DNA of 64,000 nt from Acidobacteria bacterium Ga0077534. GTDB taxonomy: Bacteria; Acidobacteriota; Blastocatellia; Pyrinomonadales; Pyrinomonadaceae. This document shows, one piece after another, positions 2 to 24,507 of the stretch. Below the pieces are notes generated by a model. That model saw nothing but the letters and a program-made list of their open reading frames with translations, did no database searches and had not been told where the DNA came from. The position numbers were made by a program, and so were the translations under genes. Numbering within the stretch: position 1 is the first letter of the stretch; each line of letters begins with the position of its first letter. The stretch covers positions 124,001-188,000 of the forward strand of contig LNEI01000027.1 in assembly GCA_001464455.1 (NCBI GenBank), in the 5' to 3' direction.

Positions 2-460
2 CTGCGAGGCATCGGCGAAGCGATGACCCCATTTTTACTGGATTCAAAGACTTTCCTTCGGTTTCGCATGCAGAGTACGCTCGCCGGGGCGAATCATCAC
101 TTGATAACAGACGACCGCATAGAATCGATCCGCCGCCCGCTCCACGCCGCAGACGGCCACCGCTCGGTCCTCGCCACATCGCGAAACTGGCACGCCGACC
201 GCCTCGAACAAGACGCGCACCTCATCAAACAGCCGACGCTGATAATCTGGGGCGACCAGGACACCGTCATCGATATCAAAAACGGCCACACGCTCCACCG
301 CGAGATCCTGAATTCCCGCTTCGTCATCTTCAAAGACTGCGGCCACGTCCCGCAGGAAGAAAGAAGCGAACTCTTCACCGAACTCGTCAGCGAATTCGCC
401 CATGACAAGAAAGGCAGGATCGAGGCAAGAGAAGGGGATGATGTGCGGTTGGAGATATGA
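2..460 (+). CDS. alpha/beta hydrolase, C-terminal part (5' end outside window)
   Basis: The frame is open to the window edge, so this is the C-terminal part of a longer protein. The end of an alpha/beta hydrolase is recognisable: PTLIIWGDQDTVI carries the acid residue of the catalytic triad, and DCGHVPQEE carries the catalytic histidine. The nucleophile Ser lies upstream of the window. The C-terminal tail after about residue 130 is charged and not conserved-looking. The next gene starts inside the stop codon (ATGA), which suggests translational coupling. Substrate cannot be inferred. Confidence 0.8.
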   Translation: MRGIGEAMTPFLLDSKTFLRFRMQSTLAGANHHLITDDRIESIRRPLHAADGHRSVLATSRNWHADRLEQDAHLIKQPTLIIWGDQDTVIDIKNGHTLHREILNSRFVIFKDCGHVPQEERSELFTELVSEFAHDKKGRIEAREGDDVRLEI

Positions 461-8191: not shown

Positions 8192-8500
8192 ATGACAGCA
8201 CAGCGGCAGAGAGAGATGGTGATCGAGTACGAAAAGGTCCAGACCATTCGTAAACGCGCTAGAACGACACTTTCGACATGCGAGCACTGTTGTGACGAGA
8301 CGGATTCCATTTCGCTAGCTGAGGCGGCAGAGCTGTTTGAAACCGGACGTGAAGAACTGCTCCATTTTATCAGGGAAAACAACTGTCATTATCACGTCAA
8401 TGTCGACGCCAGAATGTATCTATGTGTGCGGTCGCTGCTCGATAAAATGCAGCAACTGATCAAAGTACGCCGTCTGCCGGCAAAGGGAGAAAAGCAATGA
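8192..8500 (+). CDS. small CxxC helix-turn-helix protein upstream of autotransporter-repeat gene
   Basis: A 102-residue protein with a Cys cluster (CEHCC near residue 30), then SLAEAAELFETGREELLHFI, which looks like an excisionase-type helix-turn-helix, and a second Cys in YLCVRSLL. I recall similar small proteins next to secreted-protein genes in Acidobacteriota, but have not checked this. The stop overlaps the ATG of the next gene (ATGA at 8497-8500), so the two are translationally coupled. A regulatory role for the downstream gene is an inference. Confidence 0.6.
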   Translation: MTAQRQREMVIEYEKVQTIRKRARTTLSTCEHCCDETDSISLAEAAELFETGREELLHFIRENNCHYHVNVDARMYLCVRSLLDKMQQLIKVRRLPAKGEKQ

Positions 8501-11500
8501 GGAATATTGGTGGAAACTCTTGGAGGGCAGCGGCCCGGATGATGTTTGTCAAGGGATCGGCCTTGACTGCGTTGCTGATCAGTCTGATCGCGCCAATGAG
8601 TGCACAGCAGCCAGGCCAGGATCTATACGACCGGCTTTTCGGTTCCAATGAACTCCTTAGGGTGATCTCATTACCGCGCGATGGCTTTGGAAGAGCACAA
8701 TCCAACGATAACCGCCCACAGGCAGTCGAAACTTGGTCGGGAGGCGATAATAATGATGCGCTTTGGACCAGTAACGACAACTGGGCCGGCATCGGCGGAG
8801 CCGGAGCGGGTGACGACCTGTTCTTCCCGACCGTTGCTGCACGGCTGACAAACACAAACGATTTTCCTGTCAACACTAGTTTTGCGTCGCTCAATTTTCA
8901 AGGGAACGCATACGTCATTAGCGGGAATCAGATCATTCTTACAGGGGGCATTGTCAACAACCCATCGGGCGGCGGTAGCCCTCCAGTGTTCAACCCAAAT
9001 ATCCTAATGACTGCGACCCAGACATTCAGCAGCGCCACGAGCCATGTGGAATTAAATGGCGTAGTCAATCTGCAAACTTTCGATCTAACGCTTACGGGTA
9101 ATGGCAATCATCGCTTTGATGGGCAGGTGATCGGCGGTATTGGAGCACGACTCACCAAGAATGGCAGCGGGACAGCACGCTTTTTCGGAAACAGTCCCAA
9201 TGCCCCTGATATCCATCTAAACGCGGGCACCGTAATACTAGAACCCGGCGGAATCTACAACAATGATTTTAGCGTGTTCGGCGGTACCGTGATCCTTAAC
9301 GGAACACAATCAGGAAGTGTGGGATTGAGCGGGGGGACGGTTCGTGGAACGGGTACGACCGGAGCTATCTCGACGGACACTGTAGATGACAGCGGGGGAA
9401 CCGTTTCACCTGGAAACACGGGTACGTCAACCGGCATTCTTACTTCGACTGGCAATGTAAACCTCAGTGTTGGTTCCTCCACGTTGGAAATCGATCTCAA
9501 CGGTGCCACAGTTGGGACGCAATACGACCGCCTTGCCTCCACCGGTGGAAACATCAATCTGACCGGTTCAACCCTAGATCTTAAACTTGGTTTTACTCCG
9601 ACGGTCGGACAGACATTCTCCATCGTCACCACAAACAGTTCAGTTATCGGTCAGTTTGCTCAGGGCACGAGCATCGTTAAGGAGGGCCAGGTCTTCTCGA
9701 TCACGTACAACCCAACCGGCGTCGTGCTCACGGCTCAAGGACCATTTGCGTCGCTGACTTGGGATGGCGGCGGCTCGACAAACAATTGGTCCGAGGCGGC
9801 TAACTGGAATCTGAACGTTGTACCCGTTGACGGCATCGATCTCATCTTTCCCGCGGGAGCTCCCGCGAACAGCTTGGAAAATAACAACAATATCGCAGGA
9901 TTAGATATTCGTTCGATCACCATCAGCGGTTCCGGCTACAATATCGCCGGTAATGGGATCACCCTTACAAACGGAGTTCAACGAACGACTGGCACGGGCA
10001 CGACGAGCCTCGCACTTGCGATCACTCTATTACAGCCTCAGACCTTTGACGGGGGTGATTCAAGTGACCCACTCGCCTTTTTTGGCGCGGTTAATCTTAA
10101 TGGGTTCGCTCTGACATTGGATATTGATGGCGGTGCTGGCGCGGGTCTCAGTTTAGTTGGAGTGGTCTCCGGCTCCGGAGGGCTGACGAAGACGGGCAGC
10201 GGCGGACTTCAAATCAGTGGAAACAATACGTATACAGGGGTGACGACAGTCAGCGCAGGAGCGATACAACTTTCTACCAATGGAGCATTCGGTGCGACAG
10301 GAGCAGGAAATAACACCGTTGTCGCCTCTGGTGCAGCCCTCAGGTTCGCCATCGTGACTTCATCAGAGCCTTTTACACTAAGCAACTCAACCATATCGAC
10401 CGTCGGAGGAGGGGGTACACGAATTCTTAGCGGGGCCATCACCCTCACCGGCAATCCGATCGTCGATCTATCCTCGCCTCTGACCATAAGTGGAGTCATC
10501 AGCGGCAACGGATTCGGTCTGACAAAAGTTGGTTCCGACGCGCTAACGCTTACGGCCAACAATTCATATACCGGAACTACGACCGTCAACGCTGGAACTC
10601 TATTTGTCAATGGAAATCAGCTGAACAGCAGTGTGAGCCTGACGGGGGGCACGCTAGGAGGAACCGGCTTGATCGGTAGTCTTAATGCCACCGGAGGTAC
10701 GATCGCACCAGGAAACAGTCCGGGAAGGCTCAATATCCGGCCCTCGGCGACACTTAATGCTGCGACGACTCTTCATTTTGAGATCGGCGGCCTAATCGCG
10801 GCTTCTGAGCACGATCATATTTTCGTAAATGATCCATCTACAGCGTCGCTGAATCTAGGCGGGGCCTCTTTCAGTGGGAGCTTGGTTAACGGTTTTACTC
10901 CTACAGTCGGCCAGCAGTTCTCGATCATACAGATCTCTTCGGGTTCGATCACCGGGCAGTTCGCTCAGGGAAATATCGTTAATATTGGTGGGGTACAATT
11001 CAGCGTTGCTTACCTTCAACTGGCGGTGGTTTTGACAGTGGTTCCTCCTACTTTCACGTGGGATGGTGGCGGCACGACCAACAACTGGTCCGAGGCCGCG
11101 AACTGGAGCCCTGACGCCGTTCCGGTGGACGGAGCGAACCTTATCTTTCCAACCGGTGCGCCGTTTGATAGCAAGAATATGACGAACAATATTCCGGGCC
11201 TGGATCTCCGCTCGATAGCTATTTCCGATGGCGAATACTTCATGGGCGGGAATGCTGTCACCCTGTCGCACGGGGTCGCCGTGAATATACCCCAAGGTGG
11301 GCAATCTTCCAGATTCGAGATCCCGCTGACTCTTACTCAGCCCCAGACGATCAGTTTCGATGGTTCAGGCTCGCTGATCTTCGACGATGCTTCGATAAAC
11401 CTGAACGGATCAACGCTGACCCTGGACTCGCAAGGTTCGATCGCGATACTAAGCACGATCTCTGGTGCCGGCGAGATTGTTAAGAGCGGTAGTGGGTTCT

Positions 11501-13419
11501 TAAGCTTCCAAGCTTCTAACATCTATACAGGGACAACTACGATCAATGCCGGCATATTAAGCGTCGGTACGACAAATTCACTTGGGGCCTCCGGACCTTC
11601 AAATAGTACGATCGTCGCTAATGGAGCGCAGCTTAGAACGAGCTTTAATACTTCCGGCCTTACCGAATCTATAACCCTAAATGGAAGCGGTCCAAATGGG
11701 AATGGGGCACTGGCGGCCAACCAATGCGGACAAGGGTGCTCAATTGCCGGCCCGATCACGCTTGGGAGCACTTCGACGATTCAAGCTCTCGGAGCCGACA
11801 TACTTTCTCTTACCGGTCCGATAAATGGCAGTGCCGGCCTGACAAAGGTCGGCGCCGGGACCCTGATACTCTCCGGCAACAACACGTACAGCGGTACGAC
11901 GACGATAAATAACGGAACACTCCTTATCAACGGCAGCCAGACATCCAGTAATGTAAATCTCACCGGCGGGACTCTGGGCGGTACCGGCACGATCCGCGAC
12001 CTGATAGCGACCGGCGGAACTGTTGCGCCCGGAAACAGTCCGGGAATTCTAACCGCCAGCCCAGCAACCCTGAATTCTTCACTAAATGCGGCAACGACTT
12101 TGAATATCGAGATCGGCGGAACGACGGCTGGTACACAGTACGACCGACTGACTTTTAGTCCAGTTGCAGGCGGTGGCGTTGATCTTGGTGGAGCCTCACT
12201 AACCGGTACGCTGATCAACGGCTTCAGTCCATCGCCTGGACAGCAGTTTGAAATATTGCAGGTAATAGGAACAACGCTGACCGGCCAGTTTGCCCAAGGG
12301 AGCTCCGTTACCATCGGCGGCATCGATTTTCTTATATCCTACACTAGCAACAGCGTTGTCCTTAGGGCGCCGGGCGGCAATCCAACCCCAACTCCGACCG
12401 CGACACCTACTCCGACGGCCACGCCGACCCCAACGGCAACCCCGACTCCAACGGCGACCCCGACCCCAACAGCAACGCCGACCCCAACGGCAACCCCTAC
12501 TCCAACAGCGACCCCGACCCCGACGCCAACGGCGACACCGACGCCAACGGCGACCCCGACGCCAACGGCCACGCCTACCCCGACGGCGACACCAACCCCA
12601 ACAGCAACTCCAACGCCGACGCCGACCGCGACGCCGACCCCAACTCCTACACCAACTCCGGGTTGCCAGCCGAGTTTGGATATTTTGCAGGACGGAGGTT
12701 TTGAGGCAAATACGCCGGCACGGACAAATCCGAACTGGACCTCGACCTCGACCACCTTTGGCAGTGCTCTTTGTAACAATGGGTTGTGCGGAGCGGCGGC
12801 GCGAACCGGGAACGGCTATGTTCTATTCGATGGCGGAGCGAACGGCAGTCCCAGCGAAACCGCGACGGTGGCCCAGGTCGTCAATATCCCGGCCGGTTCG
12901 GTCGCAACGTTGAACTACTTCCTGCGGGCAGTGAGTGTAAGTGCTCCGTCGACTACCACCATCACGGTTAGCGTTGACGGCGTGGTCGTTCAGACCATCA
13001 ACGAACCGGCGGCCGCAAGCGGTGATTACGCCCAACTCTCGACCGACCTGACCGCCTTTGCAGGAGGAACCCGGACGGTCACCTTTACCTATACGCGCCC
13101 TGCCGGATCGCCGAGCGATGAGTTTCTGCTCGACGATGTGTCGCTAGCGATATCCTGCGGCACGGCGGTGATCAATGTCGGCGGCCGCGTTTTCACTCCG
13201 TCCGGACTCGCCCTCAGAAACGCGATCGTCATCCTGACCGACAGCCAGAATGTGCGGCGAACGTCAACGACAAGTTCGTTCGGCATCTACTCGTTCGACA
13301 ACGTGAGGGTCGGTGAGCAGTACATCCTCAGCGTCTCGTCAAAACGCTTCCGCTTCACGCCGAAGATCGAGCTGTTCTCGGCAAGTATCACTAACTTAGA
13401 CTTCGTGGGATTGGAGTAG
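8497..13419 (+). CDS. giant secreted autotransporter-associated beta-strand repeat protein
   Basis: A 1640-residue exported protein with a signal peptide (about residues 15-36, ending PMSAQQ). The bulk is beta-helical PATR repeats, visible as recurring GLTKTGSGGLQISGNNTYTG-type units and FTPTVGQTFSI segments. The TWDGGG.TNNWSEAANW module occurs at about residues 422 and 852, and a related WSGGDNNDALWTSNDNW occurs near the N-terminus. A PTPTA low-complexity linker (about 1294-1388) separates this from a DGGFE-type jelly-roll-like domain (about 1390-1550). The protein ends in a carboxypeptidase-regulatory-like beta domain (about 1555-1640). No C-terminal beta-barrel is seen, so the family name is by repeat only. 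Probably cell-surface or extracellular; adhesin-like function is a guess. Confidence 0.85.
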   Translation: MRNIGGNSWRAAARMMFVKGSALTALLISLIAPMSAQQPGQDLYDRLFGSNELLRVISLPRDGFGRAQSNDNRPQAVETWSGGDNNDALWTSNDNWAGIGGAGAGDDLFFPTVAARLTNTNDFPVNTSFASLNFQGNAYVISGNQIILTGGIVNNPSGGGSPPVFNPNILMTATQTFSSATSHVELNGVVNLQTFDLTLTGNGNHRFDGQVIGGIGARLTKNGSGTARFFGNSPNAPDIHLNAGTVILEPGGIYNNDFSVFGGTVILNGTQSGSVGLSGGTVRGTGTTGAISTDTVDDSGGTVSPGNTGTSTGILTSTGNVNLSVGSSTLEIDLNGATVGTQYDRLASTGGNINLTGSTLDLKLGFTPTVGQTFSIVTTNSSVIGQFAQGTSIVKEGQVFSITYNPTGVVLTAQGPFASLTWDGGGSTNNWSEAANWNLNVVPVDGIDLIFPAGAPANSLENNNNIAGLDIRSITISGSGYNIAGNGITLTNGVQRTTGTGTTSLALAITLLQPQTFDGGDSSDPLAFFGAVNLNGFALTLDIDGGAGAGLSLVGVVSGSGGLTKTGSGGLQISGNNTYTGVTTVSAGAIQLSTNGAFGATGAGNNTVVASGAALRFAIVTSSEPFTLSNSTISTVGGGGTRILSGAITLTGNPIVDLSSPLTISGVISGNGFGLTKVGSDALTLTANNSYTGTTTVNAGTLFVNGNQLNSSVSLTGGTLGGTGLIGSLNATGGTIAPGNSPGRLNIRPSATLNAATTLHFEIGGLIAASEHDHIFVNDPSTASLNLGGASFSGSLVNGFTPTVGQQFSIIQISSGSITGQFAQGNIVNIGGVQFSVAYLQLAVVLTVVPPTFTWDGGGTTNNWSEAANWSPDAVPVDGANLIFPTGAPFDSKNMTNNIPGLDLRSIAISDGEYFMGGNAVTLSHGVAVNIPQGGQSSRFEIPLTLTQPQTISFDGSGSLIFDDASINLNGSTLTLDSQGSIAILSTISGAGEIVKSGSGFLSFQASNIYTGTTTINAGILSVGTTNSLGASGPSNSTIVANGAQLRTSFNTSGLTESITLNGSGPNGNGALAANQCGQGCSIAGPITLGSTSTIQALGADILSLTGPINGSAGLTKVGAGTLILSGNNTYSGTTTINNGTLLINGSQTSSNVNLTGGTLGGTGTIRDLIATGGTVAPGNSPGILTASPATLNSSLNAATTLNIEIGGTTAGTQYDRLTFSPVAGGGVDLGGASLTGTLINGFSPSPGQQFEILQVIGTTLTGQFAQGSSVTIGGIDFLISYTSNSVVLRAPGGNPTPTPTATPTPTATPTPTATPTPTATPTPTATPTPTATPTPTATPTPTPTATPTPTATPTPTATPTPTATPTPTATPTPTPTATPTPTPTPTPGCQPSLDILQDGGFEANTPARTNPNWTSTSTTFGSALCNNGLCGAAARTGNGYVLFDGGANGSPSETATVAQVVNIPAGSVATLNYFLRAVSVSAPSTTTITVSVDGVVVQTINEPAAASGDYAQLSTDLTAFAGGTRTVTFTYTRPAGSPSDEFLLDDVSLAISCGTAVINVGGRVFTPSGLALRNAIVILTDSQNVRRTSTTSSFGIYSFDNVRVGEQYILSVSSKRFRFTPKIELFSASITNLDFVGLE
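12387..12660. repeat. hexanucleotide-type tandem repeat encoding the PTPTA linker
   Basis: Degenerate repeats of ACNCCNAC-type units encode PTPTATPTP for about 90 codons inside the autotransporter-repeat gene. Units are multiples of three bases, so slippage would change linker length without a frameshift. A shorter version occurs in the subtilase gene near 19.8 kb. Confidence 0.85.
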
Positions 13420-13439
13420 GCCTTCAGTCGATACACGGC

Positions 13440-13468
13440 GGCGGTTCGTTGCTACGGACCGCCTTTTT
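13440..13468 (+). terminator. intrinsic terminator after autotransporter-repeat gene
   Basis: GGCGGT (13440-13445) pairs with ACCGCC (13458-13463), with an inner CGT/ACG pairing, followed by TTTTT. Confidence 0.75.
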
Positions 13469-13482
13469 CCTTTAGAAGAAGG

Positions 13483-13712
13483 CCGTTCCACTTCGGTGCT
13501 GACGTGGAACGGGCTAAATCTCTGAGATTCAAGCGGTTACGGCAAAAAATCGTTCCACTTGCAAAAAAAGCCATGCCCGCAAGTGGAACGCCCGCGGGCG
13601 AAATCGTCTCACCTGCTTGCCGCACGTGAGACGGATTAACAGTCCTGTTTCCAACGTTTACAGCTAAAAATCGTCTCACCACCAAAAAAGACCAACCCCA
13701 ATGTGAGACGAT
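13483..13712. repeat. array of four palindromes, GTTCCAC and GTCTCAC types
   Basis: Four hairpin-forming units follow each other. Unit 1: CCGTTCCAC 13483-13491 with GTGGAACGG 13504-13512. Unit 2: CGTTCCACTTGC 13551-13562 with GCAAGTGGAACG 13579-13590. Unit 3: CGTCTCAC 13605-13612 with GTGAGACG 13626-13633. Unit 4: ATCGTCTCAC 13670-13679 with GTGAGACGAT 13703-13712. Unit starts are 54-68 bases apart, and units 2-4 are preceded by an A-rich AAAT(C) word. Arms are perfect while loops are unrelated. Confidence 0.75.
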
Positions 13713-13883
13713 GTCCTAAAGCTCGCCAAAACGTGTCCATTTTAGCTAGACCTATCCCGAGCGCGGACCATGATTTTCAAATATCTCACGAGCAAAACTA
13801 AAACAACGCTCATGTATGTTGCAAAGATAACACAAGATTGCAACAATGTCAAGGCCGGCTATTTGGAAAGTGATCGTGTCGTG

Positions 13884-14044
13884 AGCTCCGTAGGAGCGGA
13901 CTGTTTGTAGCGAACAGTCAAGATACAAGATCCCCTGCAGGGGCGGCATGGGAACATCTCACAACGAAAGGGCGGCCGCACCTACGGAGCTTGAGACATT
14001 TTATACGGGCCTCGGTTCTACAGACAGTCCGCTCCTACGGAGCT
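13884..14044. repeat. inverted repeat with 21-base arms
   Basis: Arms at 13884-13904 and 14024-14044 are perfect reverse complements built on AGCTCCGTAGGAGCGGACTG. A partial third copy (CTACGGAGCT) lies at 13982-13991. The right arm supplies the stop codon and last residues of the small minus-strand gene that ends at 14035. Confidence 0.75.
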
Positions 14045-14391
14045 GGATCCAAGAGCTCGGCCTCACGCTGACGATCGCGTTCGGCGTTCTGAGCGAGCAG
14101 GCGTTTGTCGGCCTTGTCGCGCTCGGCGGCGAGGTCTTCGTTTTGCTTTTTGAGGAGATCGTTGATGCCGGCGAGGCGCTGTTGTTCGGCCTCGGCTTTT
14201 GTGGCCCGGATCAGGTTTTCGTCACGTTGTTTGAGGTATTTTGATTCGGCCCAAGTGTCGCCCTTGGTTACGCCGAGATAGAAGACAATGCCCAGAACCG
14301 CGATGATCACAGCACCAAACGCCAGAAACGACGCCACCCGCGTGCGCGGCGACTGACTGCCAAAACGATCTATTAGCTCATGCAAATTCAC
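14035..14391 (-). CDS. membrane-anchored coiled-coil small protein
   Basis: A 118-residue protein with a short cytosolic N-terminus, one membrane span (about residues 19-43, VASFLAFGAVIIAVLGIVFY), then a charged heptad-like coiled coil (about 50-110). The start is a GTG that is itself the end of an 8-base palindrome arm, so the true start is uncertain. The C-terminus is encoded inside a palindromic repeat arm. No family recognised; the topology resembles small envelope-anchored scaffold proteins. Confidence 0.55.
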   Translation of the reverse strand: MNLHELIDRFGSQSPRTRVASFLAFGAVIIAVLGIVFYLGVTKGDTWAESKYLKQRDENLIRATKAEAEQQRLAGINDLLKKQNEDLAAERDKADKRLLAQNAERDRQREAELLDPAP

Positions 14392-14411
14392 GGTATATAG
14401 AAATACCGTGA
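14389..14411 (-). promoter_or_regulatory. palindrome overlapping the start codon
   Basis: On the minus strand, CACGGTAT, a 6-base loop, and ATACCGTG form an 8-bp perfect hairpin. Its last three bases are the GTG start codon of the coiled-coil gene. Either a hairpin controls initiation or the real start is further in. Confidence 0.4.
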
Positions 14412-14540
14412 GGGAGTGATTTATTGTGGAGGGAGCTTAAAACTCCGTGCATCTCGAGCTCTGTACTTGTCTCATTCTTAAACTCATTTCATTTTTTCGT
14501 TTTCTAATCCTAAGCTCGCTAAGAATCGGCTCGCCCCCGC

Positions 14541-15212
14541 TCACTCATTATCATCGGCTCCTTTTATGCAATCAACGGAAATATTCAAGTGCTTTTGAAG
14601 GTCTGTACAAAATCTAAGTGCGTTTTTCCCATTTGAATCGCGCGTAAAAGCTCGATAGCCGACATAATCGTAGTAGCCGCCCTCGCGAAGTTGAATAAAT
14701 ACCTGTCCTTCATCAGGGATAGGATCATTCAAGTCTCTCTGTAAATTGTTGCTTACAGGATTCTTTATGTTGCGGAGGAGCATTGTTTCATCCAAGAAAT
14801 TCCAGCCAGCCTTGGGGGTAATAGAAGATTTGACGATTTTAGCCCCGTTTTTATGAGTCTCGGCCCGAAGCTGAGTACCGGTCCAAGTCCCATTGGACTT
14901 TACTAATATGATACATTCCGGCTGCTTCAAGCCATAATACAACCACAGGCGAAGCTCAATCTCTGCATCCGATCGCGGCTCGTTAGGCAACCCGTAGAAC
15001 TGACTTAACTTGTTCAAGGTTTCACGCGTCTCAACTCGTTCTCGGCTTTCGTTTTTATGTGGCATCGGCGGTGTCTGCCCAGATTGCACCAAAACATCAT
15101 CATTATTAACCACCCGCATCTGTTCACTGCTAGAGCAACCCGTTGGTAAAGAAAACAGACTTAGAAGGAATAAAACGAGTCGCAGGGCTCGCTCACTTTT
15201 CAAATGACTCAT
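14541..15212 (-). CDS. putative lipoprotein, candidate immunity/partner of the upstream RHS tip
   Basis: A 223-residue protein with a lipoprotein signal peptide (LFSLPTGC, Cys about residue 26), and so probably membrane-anchored outside the cytoplasm. No enzymatic motif is visible. It begins 15 bases after the end of the RHS tip gene at 15228-16289, and is relatively AT-rich. The position, immediately downstream of a variable RHS C-terminus, is that of an immunity gene. The evidence for that role is position only. Confidence 0.55.
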   Translation of the reverse strand: MSHLKSERALRLVLFLLSLFSLPTGCSSSEQMRVVNNDDVLVQSGQTPPMPHKNESRERVETRETLNKLSQFYGLPNEPRSDAEIELRLWLYYGLKQPECIILVKSNGTWTGTQLRAETHKNGAKIVKSSITPKAGWNFLDETMLLRNIKNPVSNNLQRDLNDPIPDEGQVFIQLREGGYYDYVGYRAFTRDSNGKNALRFCTDLQKHLNISVDCIKGADDNE

Positions 15213-15227
15213 AATTTTACCCTACAA

Positions 15228-16289
15228 CTATTTCGCAGGAGTCAATGCAATTCCTGTCCTGCTGAATAGGCAGTAGTTGCCGGCCTCATTAAAAACTCCG
15301 AGTTTGTTTGCTGCAATCAGTATCCCGTCAATCCCTAGAGAGGAGACAGAAGGCTTATCACCAGATTTACCGCTGAAATTGTCCAGGGGGCTAGGCAAGC
15401 TAGTTCCACTCGGGTGAGTGTGCACCCAAAAAAGTATCTCCATCGCATTTGCTTGCCCCCTAACCCAAGGTAAAAAATCAGGGCCCATGCTACCCTCGAA
15501 CGTCTTGCCGGCGAACGTTGCAAATACTGGGACCTGGCGTCCACCCGGTTGCACCTCCCCAAGCCCAACAACCCCGCCTCTCTCGAGCTTTCTATTAGTT
15601 CCCGACCCCGATGCCTTCCATAGGTCCTCAAAGAAACCAAGAAAAGGTTTTAGTATTTGGGATACCCGATCACACCGTTTCTTAAGTGTAGCCATCGTAT
15701 TTGCTAGTGGGAAGGCACCCCCTAGGCCATCGCCACCGCTACCTCCGTCCATAGGTTCCCAGCCGCTAGTTCCACCACCATAGCCGGTTCCATCATCGTA
15801 CCAGTAGCGATCTATGTATTCGATACAGTGCCACTTGCCATCAGATCCTGGAGAACATCCAAGACCTCGTCGGACATCGATATACCGCATCTGCAAACCA
15901 CTCGGATCAACAAAATCCGTCGGCATGTTTTGCGTGTACGCGTACATGTTGTTCGACTGCGGGTTTCCGATCGAGGCGGCGGACATGCCTATTGGGTCGA
16001 CCTGGGTGAATCGCCCCTGGCCGCTGGAGTAGGTGCGGTTGTTGGCGTAGTCGAGGCCCGTCGTGGAGCTTCGGTCGTAGCTCGTGAAGACCTGATTCGA
16101 GTACCCCGAACTCTCCGCACCGAAAGCCGTCCCAAACGGCAGCGTCGATTGTTCGAACGTTGCCCCCGAATCTACATTCGTCACTATCTTGGTACCAAGC
16201 CGATCAGGATGGTGCGTCTCCTTTTTCTCGGTCGTACTGTTCACCCTGGAAGTTGTACCCGTGCGCTTGACACCAAGGGGTAACTTCAT
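15228..16289 (-). CDS. orphan RHS tip with JAB/DUF4329-like C-terminal domain
   Basis: Residues about 12-132 are an RHS repeat-associated core ending in the PSGL hallmark (TGLDYANNRTYSSGQGRFTQ, then VDPIG, then FVDPSGL). This segment is nearly identical to that of the gene at 17100-18308. The C-terminal 220 residues are unrelated to the other tip. They contain WVHTHPSG followed by SVSSLGID, which resembles the HxHP...SxxD metal-binding pattern of JAB/MPN or DUF4329 domains. There is no signal peptide and no large RHS shell, and the first 11 residues are not RHS-like. It is best read as a detached tip cassette, which may need recombination to be used. Confidence 0.7.
   Translation of the reverse strand: MKLPLGVKRTGTTSRVNSTTEKKETHHPDRLGTKIVTNVDSGATFEQSTLPFGTAFGAESSGYSNQVFTSYDRSSTTGLDYANNRTYSSGQGRFTQVDPIGMSAASIGNPQSNNMYAYTQNMPTDFVDPSGLQMRYIDVRRGLGCSPGSDGKWHCIEYIDRYWYDDGTGYGGGTSGWEPMDGGSGGDGLGGAFPLANTMATLKKRCDRVSQILKPFLGFFEDLWKASGSGTNRKLERGGVVGLGEVQPGGRQVPVFATFAGKTFEGSMGPDFLPWVRGQANAMEILFWVHTHPSGTSLPSPLDNFSGKSGDKPSVSSLGIDGILIAANKLGVFNEAGNYCLFSRTGIALTPAK
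15894..16257 (-). repeat. RHS core duplication, copy 1
   Basis: 364 bp that is almost identical to 17727-18090. Homology begins at TACAACTTCCAGGGTGAAC on the minus strand and stops within the PSGL codons, after which the two genes are unrelated. Confidence 0.85.
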
Positions 16290-16325
16290 AGACGACTGAC
16301 CCCGTTTCCTTACATTGTCAGCCAG

Positions 16326-16967
16326 TTACCATCGGTAGAAACAACAGTCTGTTTCTCGAATTCTGTACTTGGTTGAGTCAATCGCAGTACCTGTATTGGA
16401 GATTCGAACGAGAAACACCGTTTTTTCAGGTTTATCTTTCTCATCGCCGGTAACCGCCTTTCCAAATTTTTCGCCTGTAGAACTCCTGCTTTGCACCGAT
16501 AGTACCCCATCGTAATTAAACTGAATACGGCGTTTTGCTTTTGGTTGAAGATCGAAAATTATGAACCGATCATTTTGCGTTTGGATGAAAACATAATCCA
16601 AAACATTATGTCCCATGTTTTCAATTTCAAGGCTGTCAATCCCCGATTCACGAAAGCTTCCAAAAGCAAAAATATCCGGGCGTAGCCAGAATTTTTGTGG
16701 CTGGCGGTCATCGAAAGTGTCGTCAAAAGTGTCGCCGGAAAAAATCAAACCACTGTCAATAATTGATCGATTTTCTGTGTTAGCGTTCACGTAGACTTCA
16801 CGCCGACTCGGGATATTTGCGCGATTCTGGTACATCTTAACTACATATCCGTCCTCTGAAATTTCGGACGAATAGACCATATGACTGGCCGTAACAATCC
16901 TGAGAACACCAATTGTGACAACCAGCGTGCCAATCAAGCCCAACACAATAATTTTGCCGTATTTCAT
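16326..16967 (-). CDS. membrane-anchored hypothetical, candidate immunity/partner of RHS tip
   Basis: A 213-residue protein with an N-terminal hydrophobic segment (about residues 6-27) that anchors or exports it, followed by a mostly beta extracytoplasmic region. No recognised domain. It begins 132 bases downstream of the RHS tip gene 17100-18308 and has the lower GC of the neighbouring cassette genes. The role as immunity protein is suggested by position only. Confidence 0.5.
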   Translation of the reverse strand: MKYGKIIVLGLIGTLVVTIGVLRIVTASHMVYSSEISEDGYVVKMYQNRANIPSRREVYVNANTENRSIIDSGLIFSGDTFDDTFDDRQPQKFWLRPDIFAFGSFRESGIDSLEIENMGHNVLDYVFIQTQNDRFIIFDLQPKAKRRIQFNYDGVLSVQSRSSTGEKFGKAVTGDEKDKPEKTVFLVRISNTGTAIDSTKYRIRETDCCFYRW

Positions 16968-17099
16968 CTGTTCCTCGTCTGATCAGATAGCCTCTGATTG
17001 AATTGAAATCGGGGATTAGATCAACCCCGATTATCTTCTTCCTAACTCTACGGTAGTAAAATGCTCTTTTAAGAAAAAATTTCACGCCCCGCACGTCAT

Positions 17100-18308
17100 T
17101 TACTTATTTGGATCACACAGTATGTTTTCTATCGTCCCTCGCACCGTTGCTGCATTGTGTCCCGCCTTCCAGCCATCATGGAGAGCCTGTCCGATTGCAG
17201 TACCCGCCTGATCATCACGCAGCTCAGTTTGATGTTGGGGATTATTAACGTCCGTTTTATCCAACCACTTCAGACCTAAATCTGCCAGCTCCACGGGTAT
17301 TCCCCCTCCCCCTATTGCTATCAATTTTAGCCCGGCAAAAACAAGAAAGTGCGCATAGGCGTCGCCGCCTTGTCCTGCATTGATTAGTTCGTCTCTAAAA
17401 CCGCCAGACGCAGAGCCGCCATCGCCACGTACCTTCGGTAGCGCGTAGCTATGCATCATGTCGTATCCTTGCTTTAATAGATATGTTCCGGCGCCTGCGT
17501 TGGTTCCAGCAAACCAATATTTATCTACAAGCCACTTAACAAAATCCTTACACTTTTGTCCGATCTTTCTATCCTGCGGATTAGTGGAAGCTCCAAACGA
17601 ACCACCATCCTCCTGCCCCGGATAGGGAAAGAAGTGTTCCCAGTATCCCACCACACTACCGTCTCGGATTTGCCAAATCCGAGTTAGCCAGCCAGTCTGC
17701 CCGCCCGCTCCCGGATTCTGCATGTTGAGCCCTGACGGGTCTACAAAATCCGTCGGCATATTCTGCACGTAGGCGTACATGTTGTTAGACTGCGGGTTAC
17801 CGATCGAGGCGGCGGACATTCCTATTGGGTCGACCTGGGTGAATCGGCCCTGGCCGCTGGAGTACGTGCGGTTGTTGGCGTAGTCGAGGCCCGTCGTGGA
17901 GCTTCGGTCGTAGCTCGTGAAGACCTGATTCGAGTACCCCGAACTCTCCGCCCCGAAAGCCGTTCCAAACGGCAGCGTCGATTGTTCGAACGCTGCCCCC
18001 GAATCCACATTCGTCACTATCTTGGTACCAAGCCGATCGGGATGGTGCGTCTCCTTTTTCTCGGTCGTGCTGTTCACCCTGGAAGTTGTAAATATCAAAC
18101 GCGAACCCGCGTAGAAATAGGACTTTGTCCACCTCGGCCCCGGACTCCCGCGGTCGAGATACTCGGCCATGATCGACCCGTTTCCCCAGAAGTAGTAATA
18201 CGTGTCGAGCCCGTCGTACATCGACAGCTTCTGACGGTCGGCCCCGTACGTGTAGGTCTCAAGGTCGACATGAAAGCCCGGCGGTGTATTGTTTAAACTC
18301 AAAGACAT
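17100..18308 (-). CDS. RHS repeat-associated core protein fragment with variable C-terminus
   Basis: 402 residues. Residues 10-75 hold YD-type repeats (YTYGADRQKLSMYD, YFYAGSRL), 76-196 hold the RHS core to PSGL, and 197-402 form the variable tip. The tip contains a conserved-looking segment, AGQGGDAYAHFLVFAGL, followed by NPQHQTELRDDQAGTAIG. I cannot assign it an activity. Full RHS proteins exceed 1000 residues. Here an in-frame stop lies four codons upstream of the ATG, so the shell-forming part is absent. No signal peptide. Probably a displaced or decaying tip. Confidence 0.7.
   Translation of the reverse strand: MSLSLNNTPPGFHVDLETYTYGADRQKLSMYDGLDTYYYFWGNGSIMAEYLDRGSPGPRWTKSYFYAGSRLIFTTSRVNSTTEKKETHHPDRLGTKIVTNVDSGAAFEQSTLPFGTAFGAESSGYSNQVFTSYDRSSTTGLDYANNRTYSSGQGRFTQVDPIGMSAASIGNPQSNNMYAYVQNMPTDFVDPSGLNMQNPGAGGQTGWLTRIWQIRDGSVVGYWEHFFPYPGQEDGGSFGASTNPQDRKIGQKCKDFVKWLVDKYWFAGTNAGAGTYLLKQGYDMMHSYALPKVRGDGGSASGGFRDELINAGQGGDAYAHFLVFAGLKLIAIGGGGIPVELADLGLKWLDKTDVNNPQHQTELRDDQAGTAIGQALHDGWKAGHNAATVRGTIENILCDPNK
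17727..18090 (-). repeat. RHS core duplication, copy 2
   Basis: 364 bp partner of 15894-16257. The copies differ mostly by single-base substitutions, which implies recent duplication or gene conversion. Confidence 0.85.
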
Positions 18309-18404
18309 TCGATCTTAGCCTACGACCTTAGAATGGTTTCACGAAGATTAGAGTGCGAAAGATGCAAAAATGTTGCAAAACGGCCCCCTGGATAGCTGTT
18401 TGTC

Positions 18405-18433
18405 TTGACAGCGGCGCCGGGCGGGAATACAAT
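18405..18433 (+). promoter_or_regulatory. sigma-70 promoter of the subtilase gene
   Basis: TTGACA at 18405-18410, a 17-base GC-rich spacer, and TACAAT at 18428-18433: 11 of 12 consensus bases at optimal spacing. The 5' untranslated region to the ATG at 18599 would be about 160 bases. Confidence 0.75.
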
Positions 18434-18598
18434 TCTCGCAGTTTTTTTCGAAACCCCTTTTTTCACAATTCGTGCCTGAAACACCGTGTTTGGGCGTTAC
18501 CTTGACTAGAAACAGTGCAGCTCCTGACTTTGAACCCCTCGTCTAGCTCCATCTGCGGCGGCCGTGCTGATTCCTGATATTTCATCTAGGAGGACGTT

Positions 18599-20323
18599 AT
18601 GAAGAAATTGTTGCTTTTCGGCGTGGTAGCAGCGATCTGCCTCGTCGGTTTTGGTGTGTTTACCGCTGGAAGCAGCGGGCAGGAACGCAAGTTTCGCCGC
18701 GTGGCCGAGCCTGTTCCGAATCGTTACATCGTGGTGCTGGAAGATTGGGCCGCGGGAGAACTTGGCGATCAAGCCCGGACGGTGCAGCTCGCGGATGAAC
18801 TCGGGACAGCATACCGCATTAAGGTCGATAAGACCTTTACACACGCTTTGCGCGGCTTTTCGGTAGAGATGTCAGAGAAAGAAGCAAAGGAGCTGGCAAA
18901 TGACGTTCGCGTCAAATACATAGAAGAGGACGGCGTAGTTTACGCTAACGCAACTCAGACCGGTGCGACCTGGGGCCTCGACCGCATCGATCAGCGAGAC
19001 CGGCCGCTCAGCACCACTTACAATTACGACGCGACCGGCAGCGGCGTTAATGCATACATAATCGACACCGGCATCCGCCGTACCCACAATGACTTCGGTG
19101 GAAGGGCTTTTGTCGGCTTTGACGCATTCACGGACGGGCAGAATTCGAACGACTGTAACGGCCACGGTACTCACGTGGCCGGAACCGTCGGCGGGACGAC
19201 TTATGGCGTCGCGAAGGATGTCAGGCTTTACGCGGTACGTGTTCTGAATTGTTCCGGGTCAGGAACAAACTCAGGCGTGATCGCCGGCGTGGATTGGGTA
19301 ACCGCAAATCATGTCAAACCCGCAGTCGCAAATATGAGCCTCGGCGGCGGAGCTTCGACGGCACTCGACACGGCGGTCAACAATTCGATCGCCGCCGGTG
19401 TCAGCTACGCCGTTGCCGCCGGCAATAGCAATGTAAACGCGTGCAATTCGTCACCAGCAAGGGCACCAAACGCGATAACCGTCGGTTCGACGACGAGCAG
19501 CGACGCCCGATCGTCATTCTCGAATTTTGGAACATGTCTCGACATATTCGCTCCGGGTTCGTCGATCACCTCGGCATGGTACACATCAAATACGGCGACG
19601 AATACGATATCGGGAACCTCGATGGCATCGCCTCATGTCGCGGGTGTCGCGGCTCTTTACCTTGAAACCGATCCGACAGCATCGCCGGCAGCCGTTACTT
19701 CGGCGATCGTGGGCAACGCCACTTCGGGAAGACTGACGAGCATCGGAACCGGTTCGCCCAATCTGCTTCTTTATTCGCTCTTCGGCGGCGGCGGCGGTGG
19801 TCCGACGCCGACCCCGACGCCAACCGCGACACCGACACCGAGCCCCTCACCTACGCCGTCGGGCAACTTCCTTGTAAACGGCGGGTTTGAAGGCAGCGTT
19901 TCGCCGTGGGTCGGATCCGGCAGCGGGTATTTCTACACCGCGAACGGAAACTTTCCGCAGAACGGCACGGGTTATATCTACTTCGGTGTGAACAACAGCG
20001 TCAGCGGACAGGCCTATCAGACCGTGACAATACCGTCAACGGCAACCGGAGCACTGACGTTCTGGCTAAACGTGACGTCGAGCGAAACCACTACGACCAC
20101 GGCGTACGATCGACTCTTTGTCGAAGTCCGCAGCACGTCAGGGGCATTGCTGAGCACGCTGGGCACCTATAGTAATCTGAACAAGACAACCTCAGGAAAC
20201 TACACACTGAGATCATTCAGCGTGGCGGCGTATCGAGGTCAGACCGTCCGGATACAGTTCCGAAGTACGATGGACAGTTCGATAACTTCGACCTTCAGGG
20301 TAGATAATGTAACTCTGCAATAG
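18599..20323 (+). CDS. secreted S8 subtilisin/proteinase K-like peptidase
   Basis: 574 residues with a signal peptide (about 1-27), an I9 inhibitor propeptide (about 38-115, RYIVVLEDW start), and a peptidase domain. The catalytic Asp lies in YIIDTG (about 156), the His in GHGTHVAG (about 190), and the Ser in SGTSMASPHVAG (about 343). A G6 plus PTPTPTATP linker (about 400-425) joins an NGGFE-type C-terminal beta domain like the one in the autotransporter-repeat protein. A strong AGGAGGA ribosome binding site precedes the ATG. The enzyme is probably exported as a zymogen that self-processes, with the C-terminal domain used for surface attachment or substrate binding. Confidence 0.93.
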   Translation: MKKLLLFGVVAAICLVGFGVFTAGSSGQERKFRRVAEPVPNRYIVVLEDWAAGELGDQARTVQLADELGTAYRIKVDKTFTHALRGFSVEMSEKEAKELANDVRVKYIEEDGVVYANATQTGATWGLDRIDQRDRPLSTTYNYDATGSGVNAYIIDTGIRRTHNDFGGRAFVGFDAFTDGQNSNDCNGHGTHVAGTVGGTTYGVAKDVRLYAVRVLNCSGSGTNSGVIAGVDWVTANHVKPAVANMSLGGGASTALDTAVNNSIAAGVSYAVAAGNSNVNACNSSPARAPNAITVGSTTSSDARSSFSNFGTCLDIFAPGSSITSAWYTSNTATNTISGTSMASPHVAGVAALYLETDPTASPAAVTSAIVGNATSGRLTSIGTGSPNLLLYSLFGGGGGGPTPTPTPTATPTPSPSPTPSGNFLVNGGFEGSVSPWVGSGSGYFYTANGNFPQNGTGYIYFGVNNSVSGQAYQTVTIPSTATGALTFWLNVTSSETTTTTAYDRLFVEVRSTSGALLSTLGTYSNLNKTTSGNYTLRSFSVAAYRGQTVRIQFRSTMDSSITSTFRVDNVTLQ

Positions 20324-21768: not shown

Positions 21769-22668
21769 GTGAAAGCGGAAACGAAGACAAAAGGTAAGCT
21801 GCTAAAGAAGATCGGGCGTGCGATCGCTGATTTCTCGATGATCGAGGAGGGCGACCGGATAATGGTCTGTCTCTCGGGCGGCAAAGACAGCTACACGCTG
21901 CTCGACCTGCTGCTCGACGTGCAGAAGCGTGCACCCGTAAACTTTGAAATACTTGCAGTTAACCTCGATCAGAAGCAGCCGGATTTCCCGGAACACGTGC
22001 TGCCGGATTACCTTTCCGAGCGAAATGTACCGTTCCGGATCGTCGAAGAAGACACCTATTCGATCGTCACGAAGCACATCCCCGAGGGCGATACTTATTG
22101 CTCGCTATGCTCGAGGCTTCGCCGCGGGATCCTCTACACGACCGCCGTTGAGGAACGCTGTACCAAGATCGCACTCGGCCACCACGCGGACGATATCATC
22201 GCGACATTTTTGCTCAATCTCTTCTACGTCGGCCAGCTAAAGGCAATGCCGCCAATACTTAGGAGCGACGACGGCCGAAATACGATCATCCGCCCGCTGG
22301 CCTATTGCCAGGAAAAAGAGATCGCCGAATACGCCGCCGAGCAGCAATTCCCAATCATCCCATGCAATCTCTGCGGTTCGCAGCCAAATCTCAAGCGTGC
22401 GCGTGTCAAACGCCTCATCAACGAGCTCGAAAAGGAAACGCCTTTCATCCGAAGCTCGATGATGACCGCCCTGACAAACGTCACCGGCTCGCACCTGCTC
22501 GACAATAAACTCTATGATTTCAAGAGTTTCGAGCCGATGATCAAACAGATCCCCGCCGGCCACGGCTCGGTCGAAAAAGAACTCGACGAGATCTTTGACC
22601 ACTCAGATTCCAACTACACCCCAAACCTAATGGCCGCCGCCGGCCTGCCGATCTCCCCTCCTGCCTGA
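21769..22668 (+). CDS. ttcA: tRNA 2-thiocytidine(32) synthetase TtcA
   Basis: 299 residues. The PP-loop SGGKDS is at 36-41 (ATP pyrophosphatase). Cys111 and Cys114 (CSLC) plus the IPCNLCGS motif near residue 198 supply the [4Fe-4S] ligands typical of TtcA, and GHHADD is the second conserved motif. TtcA uses ATP and sulfide to thiolate C32 in tRNA anticodon loops. The start is taken as GTG, since no better ATG fits the family N-terminus. The last residues are encoded by a dispersed repeat (22653-22699). Confidence 0.93.
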
Positions 22669-22699
22669 GGAGGGGTGGCCGAAGGCCGGGGCAGTGGGA
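22653..22699 (+). repeat. dispersed GC-rich repeat, copy 1
   Basis: A CTCCCCTCCTGCC / GAGGAGGGG hairpin followed by TGGCCGAAGGCCGGGG. A direct copy with a few substitutions lies at 24131-24176. This copy overlaps the last codons of ttcA. Confidence 0.75.
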
Positions 22700-22718
22700 G
22701 CCGACGCGCGACGCATTT

Positions 22719-24076: not shown

Positions 24077-24507
24077 TCGGTCTCGCCTGCCCCTCGCATC
24101 TATCGCCGCCGCCCTCGCCACGATCCAAAGCTCCCCTCCTGCCCGAGGAGGGGTGGCCAAAGGCCGGGGTGGTGGGTGCGGTCCTGCTCACAGGCGGCCG
24201 AGAGTTCAAACGCGTCGAAGACGAAATCACGATCACCTGGCTATAGATAGTTCCTTTCCTAATTCGTTATTCGAAGTTCATTATTCAAGATTCCGGGTTT
24301 TTTTTCTATCCTGATCCAAGAACTGCGTGTGCGTGAGGTGCCGAGCGCCGCGAATTAAACCTGACGTACATATTTCGATTTGTTAGTAACTTTACGAAGG
24401 GTTCAATTTTCAGTAATGAGCTCAAAGTTCTGAAGAATCTGCTCCATTAATTTTGAAGTAGTCCTAATCACGTGGATTTCCGACCCTGCCTAGCGCGGTC
24501 AATAGGT
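24077..24507. other. 431-bp gene-poor stretch
   Basis: Holds a second copy of the GC-rich repeat (24131-24176) and then an AT-rich stretch (24246-24480). No gene is supported. A short open tail (VLLTGGREFKRVEDEITITW) directly after the repeat ends at 24246 and might be the end of a disrupted gene. Confidence 0.5.
24131..24176 (+). repeat. dispersed GC-rich repeat, copy 2
   Basis: Direct copy of the element at 22653-22699, with the same CTCCCCTCCTGCC / GAGGAGGGG hairpin and GGCCAAAGGCCGGGG tail. Confidence 0.75.

What the first reader, a model, noticed from the sequence alone, without database searches (positions are those of the whole stretch)
14541..18308. RHS tip cassette array: same core, different C-termini, different partner genes
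Two RHS tips share a 364-bp nearly identical core that ends exactly at PSGL, then diverge completely. Each is followed by an unrelated small exported or membrane gene. This is the layout of orphan polymorphic-toxin cassettes, where a donor tip can recombine into a full RHS gene. No full-length shell gene is present here. Both partner proteins appear membrane-anchored or lipidated, which would suit protection in the envelope.
Basis: partly seen in the sequence, partly recalled or inferred. Interest (0 to 1): 0.65.

Follow-up and report, generated by a model that had tools for sequence, protein, structure and literature searches.

The report
Two spare toxin tips with guards
This stretch holds two detached, interchangeable tail ends of a large surface toxin, each followed by its probable protective gene; such spare cassettes are known from other bacteria, but these two toxin-and-guard pairs match no named family well and the guards appear to sit in the cell envelope.

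Summary
Two minus-strand RHS 3' fragments (17100-18308, 15228-16289) share 364 nt at 93.4% identity, ending exactly at DPSGL, then diverge. Each is followed by an unrelated gene with an export- or anchor-like start. They are orphan Rhs-CT/immunity modules, a known kind. New support comes from relatives. Tip A's end is a JAB/JAMM-type domain (HTHPSGTSLPSPLD). Partner-A relatives directly follow 7 of 9 JAB-profile matches in 162 genomes, and, among loci fetched by core alone, 4 of 4 JAB tips against 0 of 36 others (the two sets share 2 loci). Tip B's end is an unnamed family; partner-B relatives follow it at 6 of 7 loci. In other species these tips sit on 1,494-2,118-residue RHS/YD-type frames. 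No shell with this core was found in this 97.9%-complete genome; its one other RHS locus has 36-39% identity, so the donor step is unsupported here. The envelope idea is supported: beside 40 full-length RHS tips, 36 next genes start with an export-like segment, against 45 of 221 control ORFs; 10 of 40 tips carry HExxH. Structure models were too poor to use. Toxicity, protection and exchange are inferred.

The parts
17100..18308 (-). tip B: 402-aa 3' fragment of an RHS gene, ATG start
   Evidence: (Rhs_assc_core 1.8e-13)
18091..18308 (-). tip B 5' part: remaining YD-repeat-like sequence upstream of the shared core
   Evidence: aligns to full-length RHS proteins of relatives
17727..18090 (-). 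shared core, copy B, 364 nt, ending in PTDFVDPSGL
   Evidence: 93.4% identical to copy A
17100..17726 (-). tip B variable C-terminus: unnamed family, probably helical
   Evidence: 7 members; 7 of 162 genomes; no Pfam family over cut-off; low-confidence all-helix model
16326..16967 (-). partner B: 213 aa, N-terminal hydrophobic segment; probable immunity protein of tip B
   Evidence: relatives directly behind tip B relatives at 6 of 7 loci, window included
15228..16289 (-). tip A: 353-aa 3' fragment of an RHS gene, ATG start 36 nt after partner B
   Evidence: (Rhs_assc_core 2.7e-13)
15894..16257 (-). shared core, copy A, 364 nt, ending in PTDFVDPSGL
15228..15893 (-). tip A variable C-terminus: JAB/JAMM-type domain
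   Evidence: Prok-JAB E 0.033 for this protein, below cut-off; 3.8e-5 for the best family member
15381..15422 (-). JAMM-type motif HTHPSGTSLPSPLD (H-x-H-x7-S-x2-D)
   Evidence: the spaced consensus is recalled, the residues E, H[ST]H, S, D are listed for Tox-JAB-2 in PMC3482391
14541..15212 (-). partner A: 223 aa, signal-like N-terminus with imperfect lipobox; probable immunity protein of tip A

Best explanation
These are two orphan Rhs-CT/immunity modules of a polymorphic toxin system, in a bacterium that is probably of the Pyrinomonadaceae (Acidobacteriota). Shown: a shared, conserved end-of-shell core, two unrelated C-termini, two unrelated partner genes, and tip-partner linkage kept across species, including on full-length RHS/YD-type frames. 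Inferred: tip A is a metal-dependent JAB enzyme and tip B a helical toxin of unknown activity; each acts in or from the envelope of a rival when carried by an exported RHS shell; each anchored partner neutralises its own tip outside the cytoplasm. In this genome the shell with this core is gone or was never there, so the modules most likely persist as immunity genes against shell-bearing relatives and as a cassette reservoir. The 364-nt repeated core would allow exchange with an incoming shell of the same class, or deletion of one module.
For: Core boundary at PxxxxDPxGL (motif in PMC3150448). Core copies differ by 18 silent against 2 replacement codons. JAMM-type motif plus Prok-JAB match in family members. 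Of 9 JAB-profile matches in 162 genomes, 7 have a partner-A relative directly behind. In loci fetched by core alone, 4 of 4 JAB tips but 0 of 36 other core-bearing frames are followed by it (Fisher 1.1e-5); two of those four loci (G007, G053) are also among the seven. At 6 of 7 tip-B loci a partner-B relative follows. The same tips sit on long frames: tip A type in L076, L081, L111; tip B type in L077, L082, L116, L117 (RHS or YD-repeat models over cut-off in L076, L111, L116, L117). G+C steps down from cores (0.57-0.58) to C-termini (0.51-0.52) to partners (0.42-0.45). Next genes of 40 full-length RHS tips are export-like in 36.
Against: No same-core shell found in the genome, so no present delivery route for these tips is known. 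One JAB tip (L228) is followed by a different lipobox gene that the partner-A profile does not match. One tip-B relative (L085) has no partner-B relative behind it. Ten of 20 partner-A profile hits and 8 of 15 partner-B hits in the held loci are not next to such a tip. Two of the seven linked JAB frames (L112, L113) show no RHS core in the held stretch. Structure models had mean pLDDT 41.2 and 44.7 and no fold match with E below 0.001. The partner profiles were iterated on loci partly fetched for their tips or partners, which can inflate hits; the core-fetched set avoids this for the choice of loci, but holds only one tip-B case.
Confidence: 0.72

Rival explanations
1. Remnants: the locus is the 3' stump of a lost full-length RHS gene plus its former downstream orphan. 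Nothing is expressed or selected now; the constraint seen in the cores dates from before the loss.
For: No shell with this core found here or elsewhere in the genome. The locus is not conserved: in 20 same-genus regions the neighbouring TtcA-bactofilin block is kept without the array, and in the nearest species (G073) similarity stops at window 20414. Tip B keeps shell sequence upstream of the core, as a stump would.
Against: Both tips and both partner genes are intact open frames with ATG starts. Frame-broken relatives exist elsewhere (L075/L177, L079/L165), so decay shows when it happens.
Confidence: 0.3
2. Tip A's JAB domain acts as a cytoplasmic nuclease, as PMC3482391 proposed for toxin JAB domains, and the anchored partner blocks entry rather than activity.
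For: PMC3482391 (passages) argues that toxin JABs resemble RadC and may be nucleases; one of 8 family members here matches RadC weakly (E 0.0064).
Against: A loose lipobox pattern is in 14 of 19 partner-A proteins, the window's own not among them. Next genes behind 40 RHS tips of this bacterial family are export-like in 36, whereas the full-length gene on contig C8 has a partner without such a segment.
Confidence: 0.2
3. The C-termini are not toxins but surface-processing or adhesion domains of RHS proteins, and the partners are cognate envelope factors.
For: No toxicity data exist for them. Metallopeptidase motifs (HExxH in 10 of 40 tips) could serve self-processing.
Against: Sharp tip polymorphism behind a constant core, linked polymorphic partners and detached tips are the layout of tested toxin/immunity systems (PMC3150448, PMC3967940, PMC13018210; passages).
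Confidence: 0.1

Closest known systems
Orphan rhs-CT/rhsI modules of Enterobacteriaceae (PMC3150448, Poole 2011; PMC3967940, Koskiniemi 2014; passages seen)
   Same: Detached 3' fragments with a core ending at PxxxxDPxGL, a variable C-terminus, a cognate gene downstream, and recurrence on full-length rhs genes elsewhere.
   Different: Salmonella LT2 keeps a main rhs gene sharing 522 bp at 95% with its orphan; here no shell with this core was found, and the near-identical copies are two orphans. Partners here are envelope-type.
Tox-JAB-1 with Imm65 (PMC3482391, passages)
   Same: JAB domain at the end of an RHS protein and a lipoprotein-type partner.
   Different: That pair is listed for Bacteroidetes only, with NxxxE in the toxin and YxC in Imm65. 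NxxxExGG occurs in 1 of 8 members here (the window's tip A) and YxC in 0 of 19 partner proteins; Pfam scans list no toxin-JAB or Imm family.
Tox-JAB-2 / DUF4329 (PF14220)
   Same: E, HTH, S, D residues; one of 8 family members scores E 0.025.
   Different: Weak; the listed partner is Imm-NTF2 family 2, not listed for the partners here.
Bacterial Teneurin-like proteins (PMC13018210, passages)
   Same: YD-shell proteins with variable C-terminal toxins and a downstream immunity gene; reported in six phyla, Acidobacteriota among them.
   Different: [quoted passage not shown] Whether the shells of the relatives used here have it was not tested.
DUF6973 (PF22322)
   Same: By eye, GDAFRH...DLxNNxxGRxI resembles tip B's GDAYAH...RDDQAGTAIG; DUF6973 also sits behind an RHS-like core in L189.
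   Different: Profile-profile comparison is no better than shuffled or reversed controls.

Membership tests
Orphan rhs-CT/rhsI module | Core fragment ending at PxxxxDPxGL, then variable sequence | tested here: met
   PTDFVDPSGL in both; 364 nt at 93.4%, then near-chance identity
Orphan rhs-CT/rhsI module | No N-terminal export part; much shorter than a full rhs gene | tested here: met
   353 and 402 aa against 1,494-2,202 aa in relatives
Orphan rhs-CT/rhsI module | Cognate gene directly downstream, linkage kept across species | tested here: met
   7 of 9 (JAB, with 16, 31, 64), 6 of 7 (tip B), 4 of 4 against 0 of 36; exceptions L228 and L085
Orphan rhs-CT/rhsI module | Near-identical core in a main rhs gene of the same genome | tested here: not met
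   a usual, not an obligatory, feature (my judgement)
Orphan rhs-CT/rhsI module | Growth inhibition neutralised by the cognate gene | not testable with these tools
   needs an experiment
JAB/JAMM superfamily | E ... HxH-x7-S-x2-D | tested here: met
   E105 and HTHPSGTSLPSPLD in tip A; a spaced S-x2-D was found in 4 of 8 members only
JAB/JAMM superfamily | Profile match above curated cut-off | tested here: inconclusive
   Prok-JAB 14.5 bits against cut-off 25; one family member reaches E 3.8e-5
JAB/JAMM superfamily | JAB fold | tested here: inconclusive
   mean pLDDT 44.7, no Foldseek match with E below 0.001
Tox-JAB-1 / Imm65 | NxxxE in the toxin family and YxC in the partner | tested here: not met
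   NxxxExGG in 1 of 8, YxC in 0 of 19
DUF6973 | Profile similarity | tested here: not met
   hhalign E 0.56 against 0.51 for the reversed and 0.096-0.89 for five shuffled profiles
Bacterial Teneurin-like proteins | FN-plug, NHL and YD-shell superfold in the parent protein | not tested
   shells of relatives were not scanned for FN-plug or NHL

The most novel reading that the evidence does not exclude
Rhs systems of this bacterial family (Pyrinomonadaceae) form an arsenal aimed mainly at the cell envelope: tips are often metal-dependent enzymes (JAB or HExxH), immunity proteins are nearly always exported or anchored, and JAB tips with their lipoprotein-type partner are an envelope-acting pair outside Tox-JAB-1/Imm65, against the earlier nuclease proposal.
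Probability: 0.45. Interest if true: 0.6.

Novelty: new member of a known kind. Interest (0 to 1): 0.4.

Why it matters
It adds two linked toxin-partner families, neither matching a named Pfam or NCBIfam family over its cut-off, to the Rhs repertoire. Text searches for Rhs with Pyrinomonadaceae, and for Rhs, orphan, Acidobacteria and toxin, gave no paper; one for Acidobacteriota with polymorphic toxin gave three, of which PMC13018210 treats RHS/YD-type Teneurin-like toxins in six phyla including Acidobacteriota (passages). The finding also gives a testable rule: if partner genes are anchored, the toxin site is the envelope. That bears on what toxin JAB domains do, since most of the bacteria that carry them are said to lack ubiquitin-like conjugation systems (PMC3482391).

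Tried and rejected
Same-genome donor shell: searched with the core protein, the RHS family model and a shell from a relative; found only the contig C8 locus and a weak 29% match on C17. Rejected for this genome, with the caveat that the assembly is 97.9% complete in 32 contigs.

Named families: Pfam, NCBIfam and PADLOC give no family over cut-off for tip B's C-terminus or for either partner; weak matches such as DUF5412 (2 of 14 partner-B proteins, best E 0.075) and TipAS (1 of 19 partner-A proteins, E 0.016) were not followed. PHROGs was not searched. PDB sequence searches of the two C-termini gave three hits at E 0.73-0.81 and none.

DUF6973 for tip B: looked similar by eye, failed against shuffled and reversed profiles.

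Structure: two AlphaFold2 models at mean pLDDT 41.2 and 44.7; the Foldseek lists had no E below 0.001 and are not used.

Shell class explains partner anchoring: tested on 20 plus 20 loci and rejected, 17 of 20 against 19 of 20 (Fisher 0.60).

Site comparison: of 40 same-genus genomes with a TtcA match I read 20 regions. TtcA and bactofilin are together in all 20 and MscL in 18 (not found in L133, L148); no match at E 1e-8 to the tips, the partners or the neighbouring S8 peptidase gene lies there. No clean empty site could be read: in the nearest species (G073) similarity stops at window 20414, and the only other DNA match of that 15-kb region is 451 nt at window 8-458 in the opposite orientation, so the region is rearranged.

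The single-sequence search with tip A's C-terminus gave 5 of 119 genomes, but two of these (G061, G071) match only its first 60-71 residues, in front of HExxH tips; they are not JAB relatives.

The glutamate aligned in L075 in alignments A2 and A4 is out of frame there (frame break); a comparable KEAGG lies in the other frame. It is not counted as support.

Corrections made on rechecking: the core is 364 nt, not the 361 nt that I first computed, which stopped at the G of DPSGL; the G073 match at window 8-458 is inverted; PMC13018210 was at first passed over.
Full report
What is there. On the minus strand between 18308 and 14541 lie four genes in the order tip B, partner B, tip A, partner A, with gaps of 132, 36 and 15 nt. 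The two tips share an ungapped 364-nt stretch at 93.4% identity that stops at the last codon of PTDFVDPSGL. Past that point identity is 5-13 of 30 per block, and before it 8 of 32. Of 20 differing codons 18 are silent (dN 0.024, dS 0.239), so the shared part diverged mostly under protein-level constraint; gene conversion between the copies cannot be excluded. The cores pass the curated cut-off of the Rhs_assc_core model. Tip B keeps about 70 further residues of YD-repeat-like sequence upstream; tip A starts 32 nt before the core. G+C falls from cores (0.57-0.58) to C-termini (0.51-0.52) to partners (0.42-0.45).

The genome. The window lies in a 4.2-Mb, 32-contig genome rated 97.9% complete. 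Four RHS cores are found in it: the two here, and a full-length 1,844-aa RHS gene with one orphan tip on contig C8, whose cores are only 36-39% identical in protein to those here. A shell from the relative G073 finds no further shell with this core, only C8 and a weak match on C17. So the array has no matching main gene. Relatives fetched by the core from named genomes are mostly Pyrinomonadaceae, Blastocatellia and other Acidobacteria records (33 loci). The contig that holds the full-length tip-B gene of G073 (same genus as the window) has the length, 139,400 nt, of record JAJTWY010000010.1, titled Pyrinomonadaceae bacterium. That the window's genome belongs to this family is an inference from that.

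Relatives. In 119 genomes of the family, 84 carry a match to the tip B protein at E 0.001. The listing was cut; among the listed matches at least 20 with about 45-63% core identity lie on open frames of 1,900-2,750 residues. The two C-termini are much rarer: 5 of 119 (tip A, of which two match only a linker) and 3 of 119 (tip B) by single-sequence search, and 8 and 7 of 162 genomes by profile.

Tip A. Its C-terminus contains HTHPSGTSLPSPLD, with a conserved glutamate 54 residues upstream. The spaced JAMM consensus is recalled; its residues are listed for toxin JABs in PMC3482391. Pfam Prok-JAB scores it below cut-off (E 0.033), but another family member reaches 3.8e-5. Of nine profile matches in eight genomes, seven are followed directly by a relative of partner A: G000, G053, G118, G007, G044, G067 and G043. 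The other two are weak: G025 has no such gene in the stretch held, and G000 contig C10 has none by the genome search with partner A. In G067 and G043 the JAB frame has no RHS core in the held stretch. At least three more held loci have an HTHP frame before a partner-A relative: L079, L084 and L121, the last on a 1,217-aa frame with YD repeats.

A less biased count. In 33 loci fetched only by the core, 43 core-bearing frames, fragments included, were found; 3 cut by contig ends were dropped. Of the 40 kept, 4 of 4 with an HTHP frame within 2.5 kb downstream are followed by a partner-A relative, and 0 of 36 others are (Fisher 1.1e-5). Two of these four loci (G007, G053) are also among the seven above. 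Against a strict pairing, one JAB tip (L228) has a different, 117-aa lipobox partner, and 10 of 20 partner-A profile hits are not behind a JAB frame.

Tip B. Seven loci in seven genomes, the window included, carry this C-terminus. They share twelve invariant columns, among them GF, L, Q, H, G and AG...G, match no Pfam family over cut-off, and are modelled as helical at low confidence. Six of seven have a partner-B relative directly behind, one of them two in tandem (L117); the seventh (L085) does not. In G073, G039, G153 and G146 the tip sits on a frame of 1,494-1,980 aa; the G153 frame has a YD-repeat match but no Rhs_assc_core match. I compared the family with DUF6973, which it resembles by eye; profile comparison was no better than controls, so that link is dropped.

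Envelope question. From the list I chose 40 long-frame RHS genes (1,278 aa or more), 20 per core class, and read the next gene. In 36 of 40 it begins with a strongly hydrophobic stretch (15-residue mean hydropathy at least 1.9 within 60 residues), against 45 of 221 control ORFs of 115-451 aa from 20 same-genus regions (Fisher 2e-17). The controls are long ORFs, not verified genes, the next gene was taken as the longest ORF near the tip's stop, and the test is crude. One of the four exceptions is this genome's own C8 gene, whose tip looks to me like a restriction-endonuclease-type domain (recalled, not tested). HExxH occurs in 10 of 40 tips against a mean of 0.13, maximum 3, in 500 shuffles. 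The difference between core classes was not significant.

Mechanism. The layout, the DPxGL boundary and the linked partner are those of tested Rhs and CDI toxin/immunity modules. PMC3150448 and PMC3967940 (passages) report that such orphan tips inhibit growth, that the cognate gene protects, and give evidence that a main gene can pick up an orphan tip by recombination over 522 bp at 95% identity. Here the substrate for such exchange would be the 364-nt core, but only with a shell from another strain or species; between the two orphans it could delete one module. The best reading is therefore an immunity and cassette reservoir without a shell of its own. That these genes are expressed, toxic or protective is inferred.

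Known or new. The kind of system is known. The nearest named pair, Tox-JAB-1 with Imm65, is described as having the only lipoprotein immunity protein in that survey and is listed for Bacteroidetes (PMC3482391, passages); listed sequence marks of that pair are not met by the families here, so I do not file these as members. Teneurin-like toxins with downstream immunity genes are reported from six phyla, Acidobacteriota among them (PMC13018210, passages); whether the shells here belong to that group was not tested. Text searches are listed under Why it matters; the library lacks most subscription papers.

Noticed in passing
L129 (G000 contig C8:90000-106000), 5251-13345: The genome's one full-length RHS gene (1,844 aa), a partner without a hydrophobic start, one orphan tip whose core looks near-identical by eye to that of the full gene, and a further small gene behind it: a main-plus-orphan locus of a different core class.
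   Followed up: partly
L192-L231 (40 loci): Ten of 40 full-length RHS tips carry HExxH, and 36 of 40 have an export-like gene next to them.
   Followed up: partly
L117 163-1685: Two different partner-B relatives in tandem behind one tip-B relative.
   Followed up: no
L228 (G066 contig C5): A JAB tip followed by a 117-aa lipobox gene that the partner-A profile does not match.
   Followed up: no
L080 6656-8087: A partner-B relative beside a partner-A relative with no RHS core in the fetched stretch: possible immunity-only array.
   Followed up: no
window 8497-20323: The array, a 1,640-aa surface-type protein with PTPTA repeats and an S8 peptidase gene are absent beside the conserved TtcA-bactofilin block in the 20 same-genus regions read; in the nearest species the region is rearranged.
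   Followed up: partly
window 13884-14044: A perfect inverted pair of 21 nt with a 119-nt spacer, just downstream of the array.
   Followed up: no
window 22653-22701 and 24131-24179: A 49-nt direct repeat, 90% identical, possibly an interspersed repeat of this genome.
   Followed up: no
L185 (G000 contig C17:133362-134879): A 2,155-aa frame weakly matching (29%) the N-terminal half of an RHS shell, on a contig without an RHS core match.
   Followed up: no
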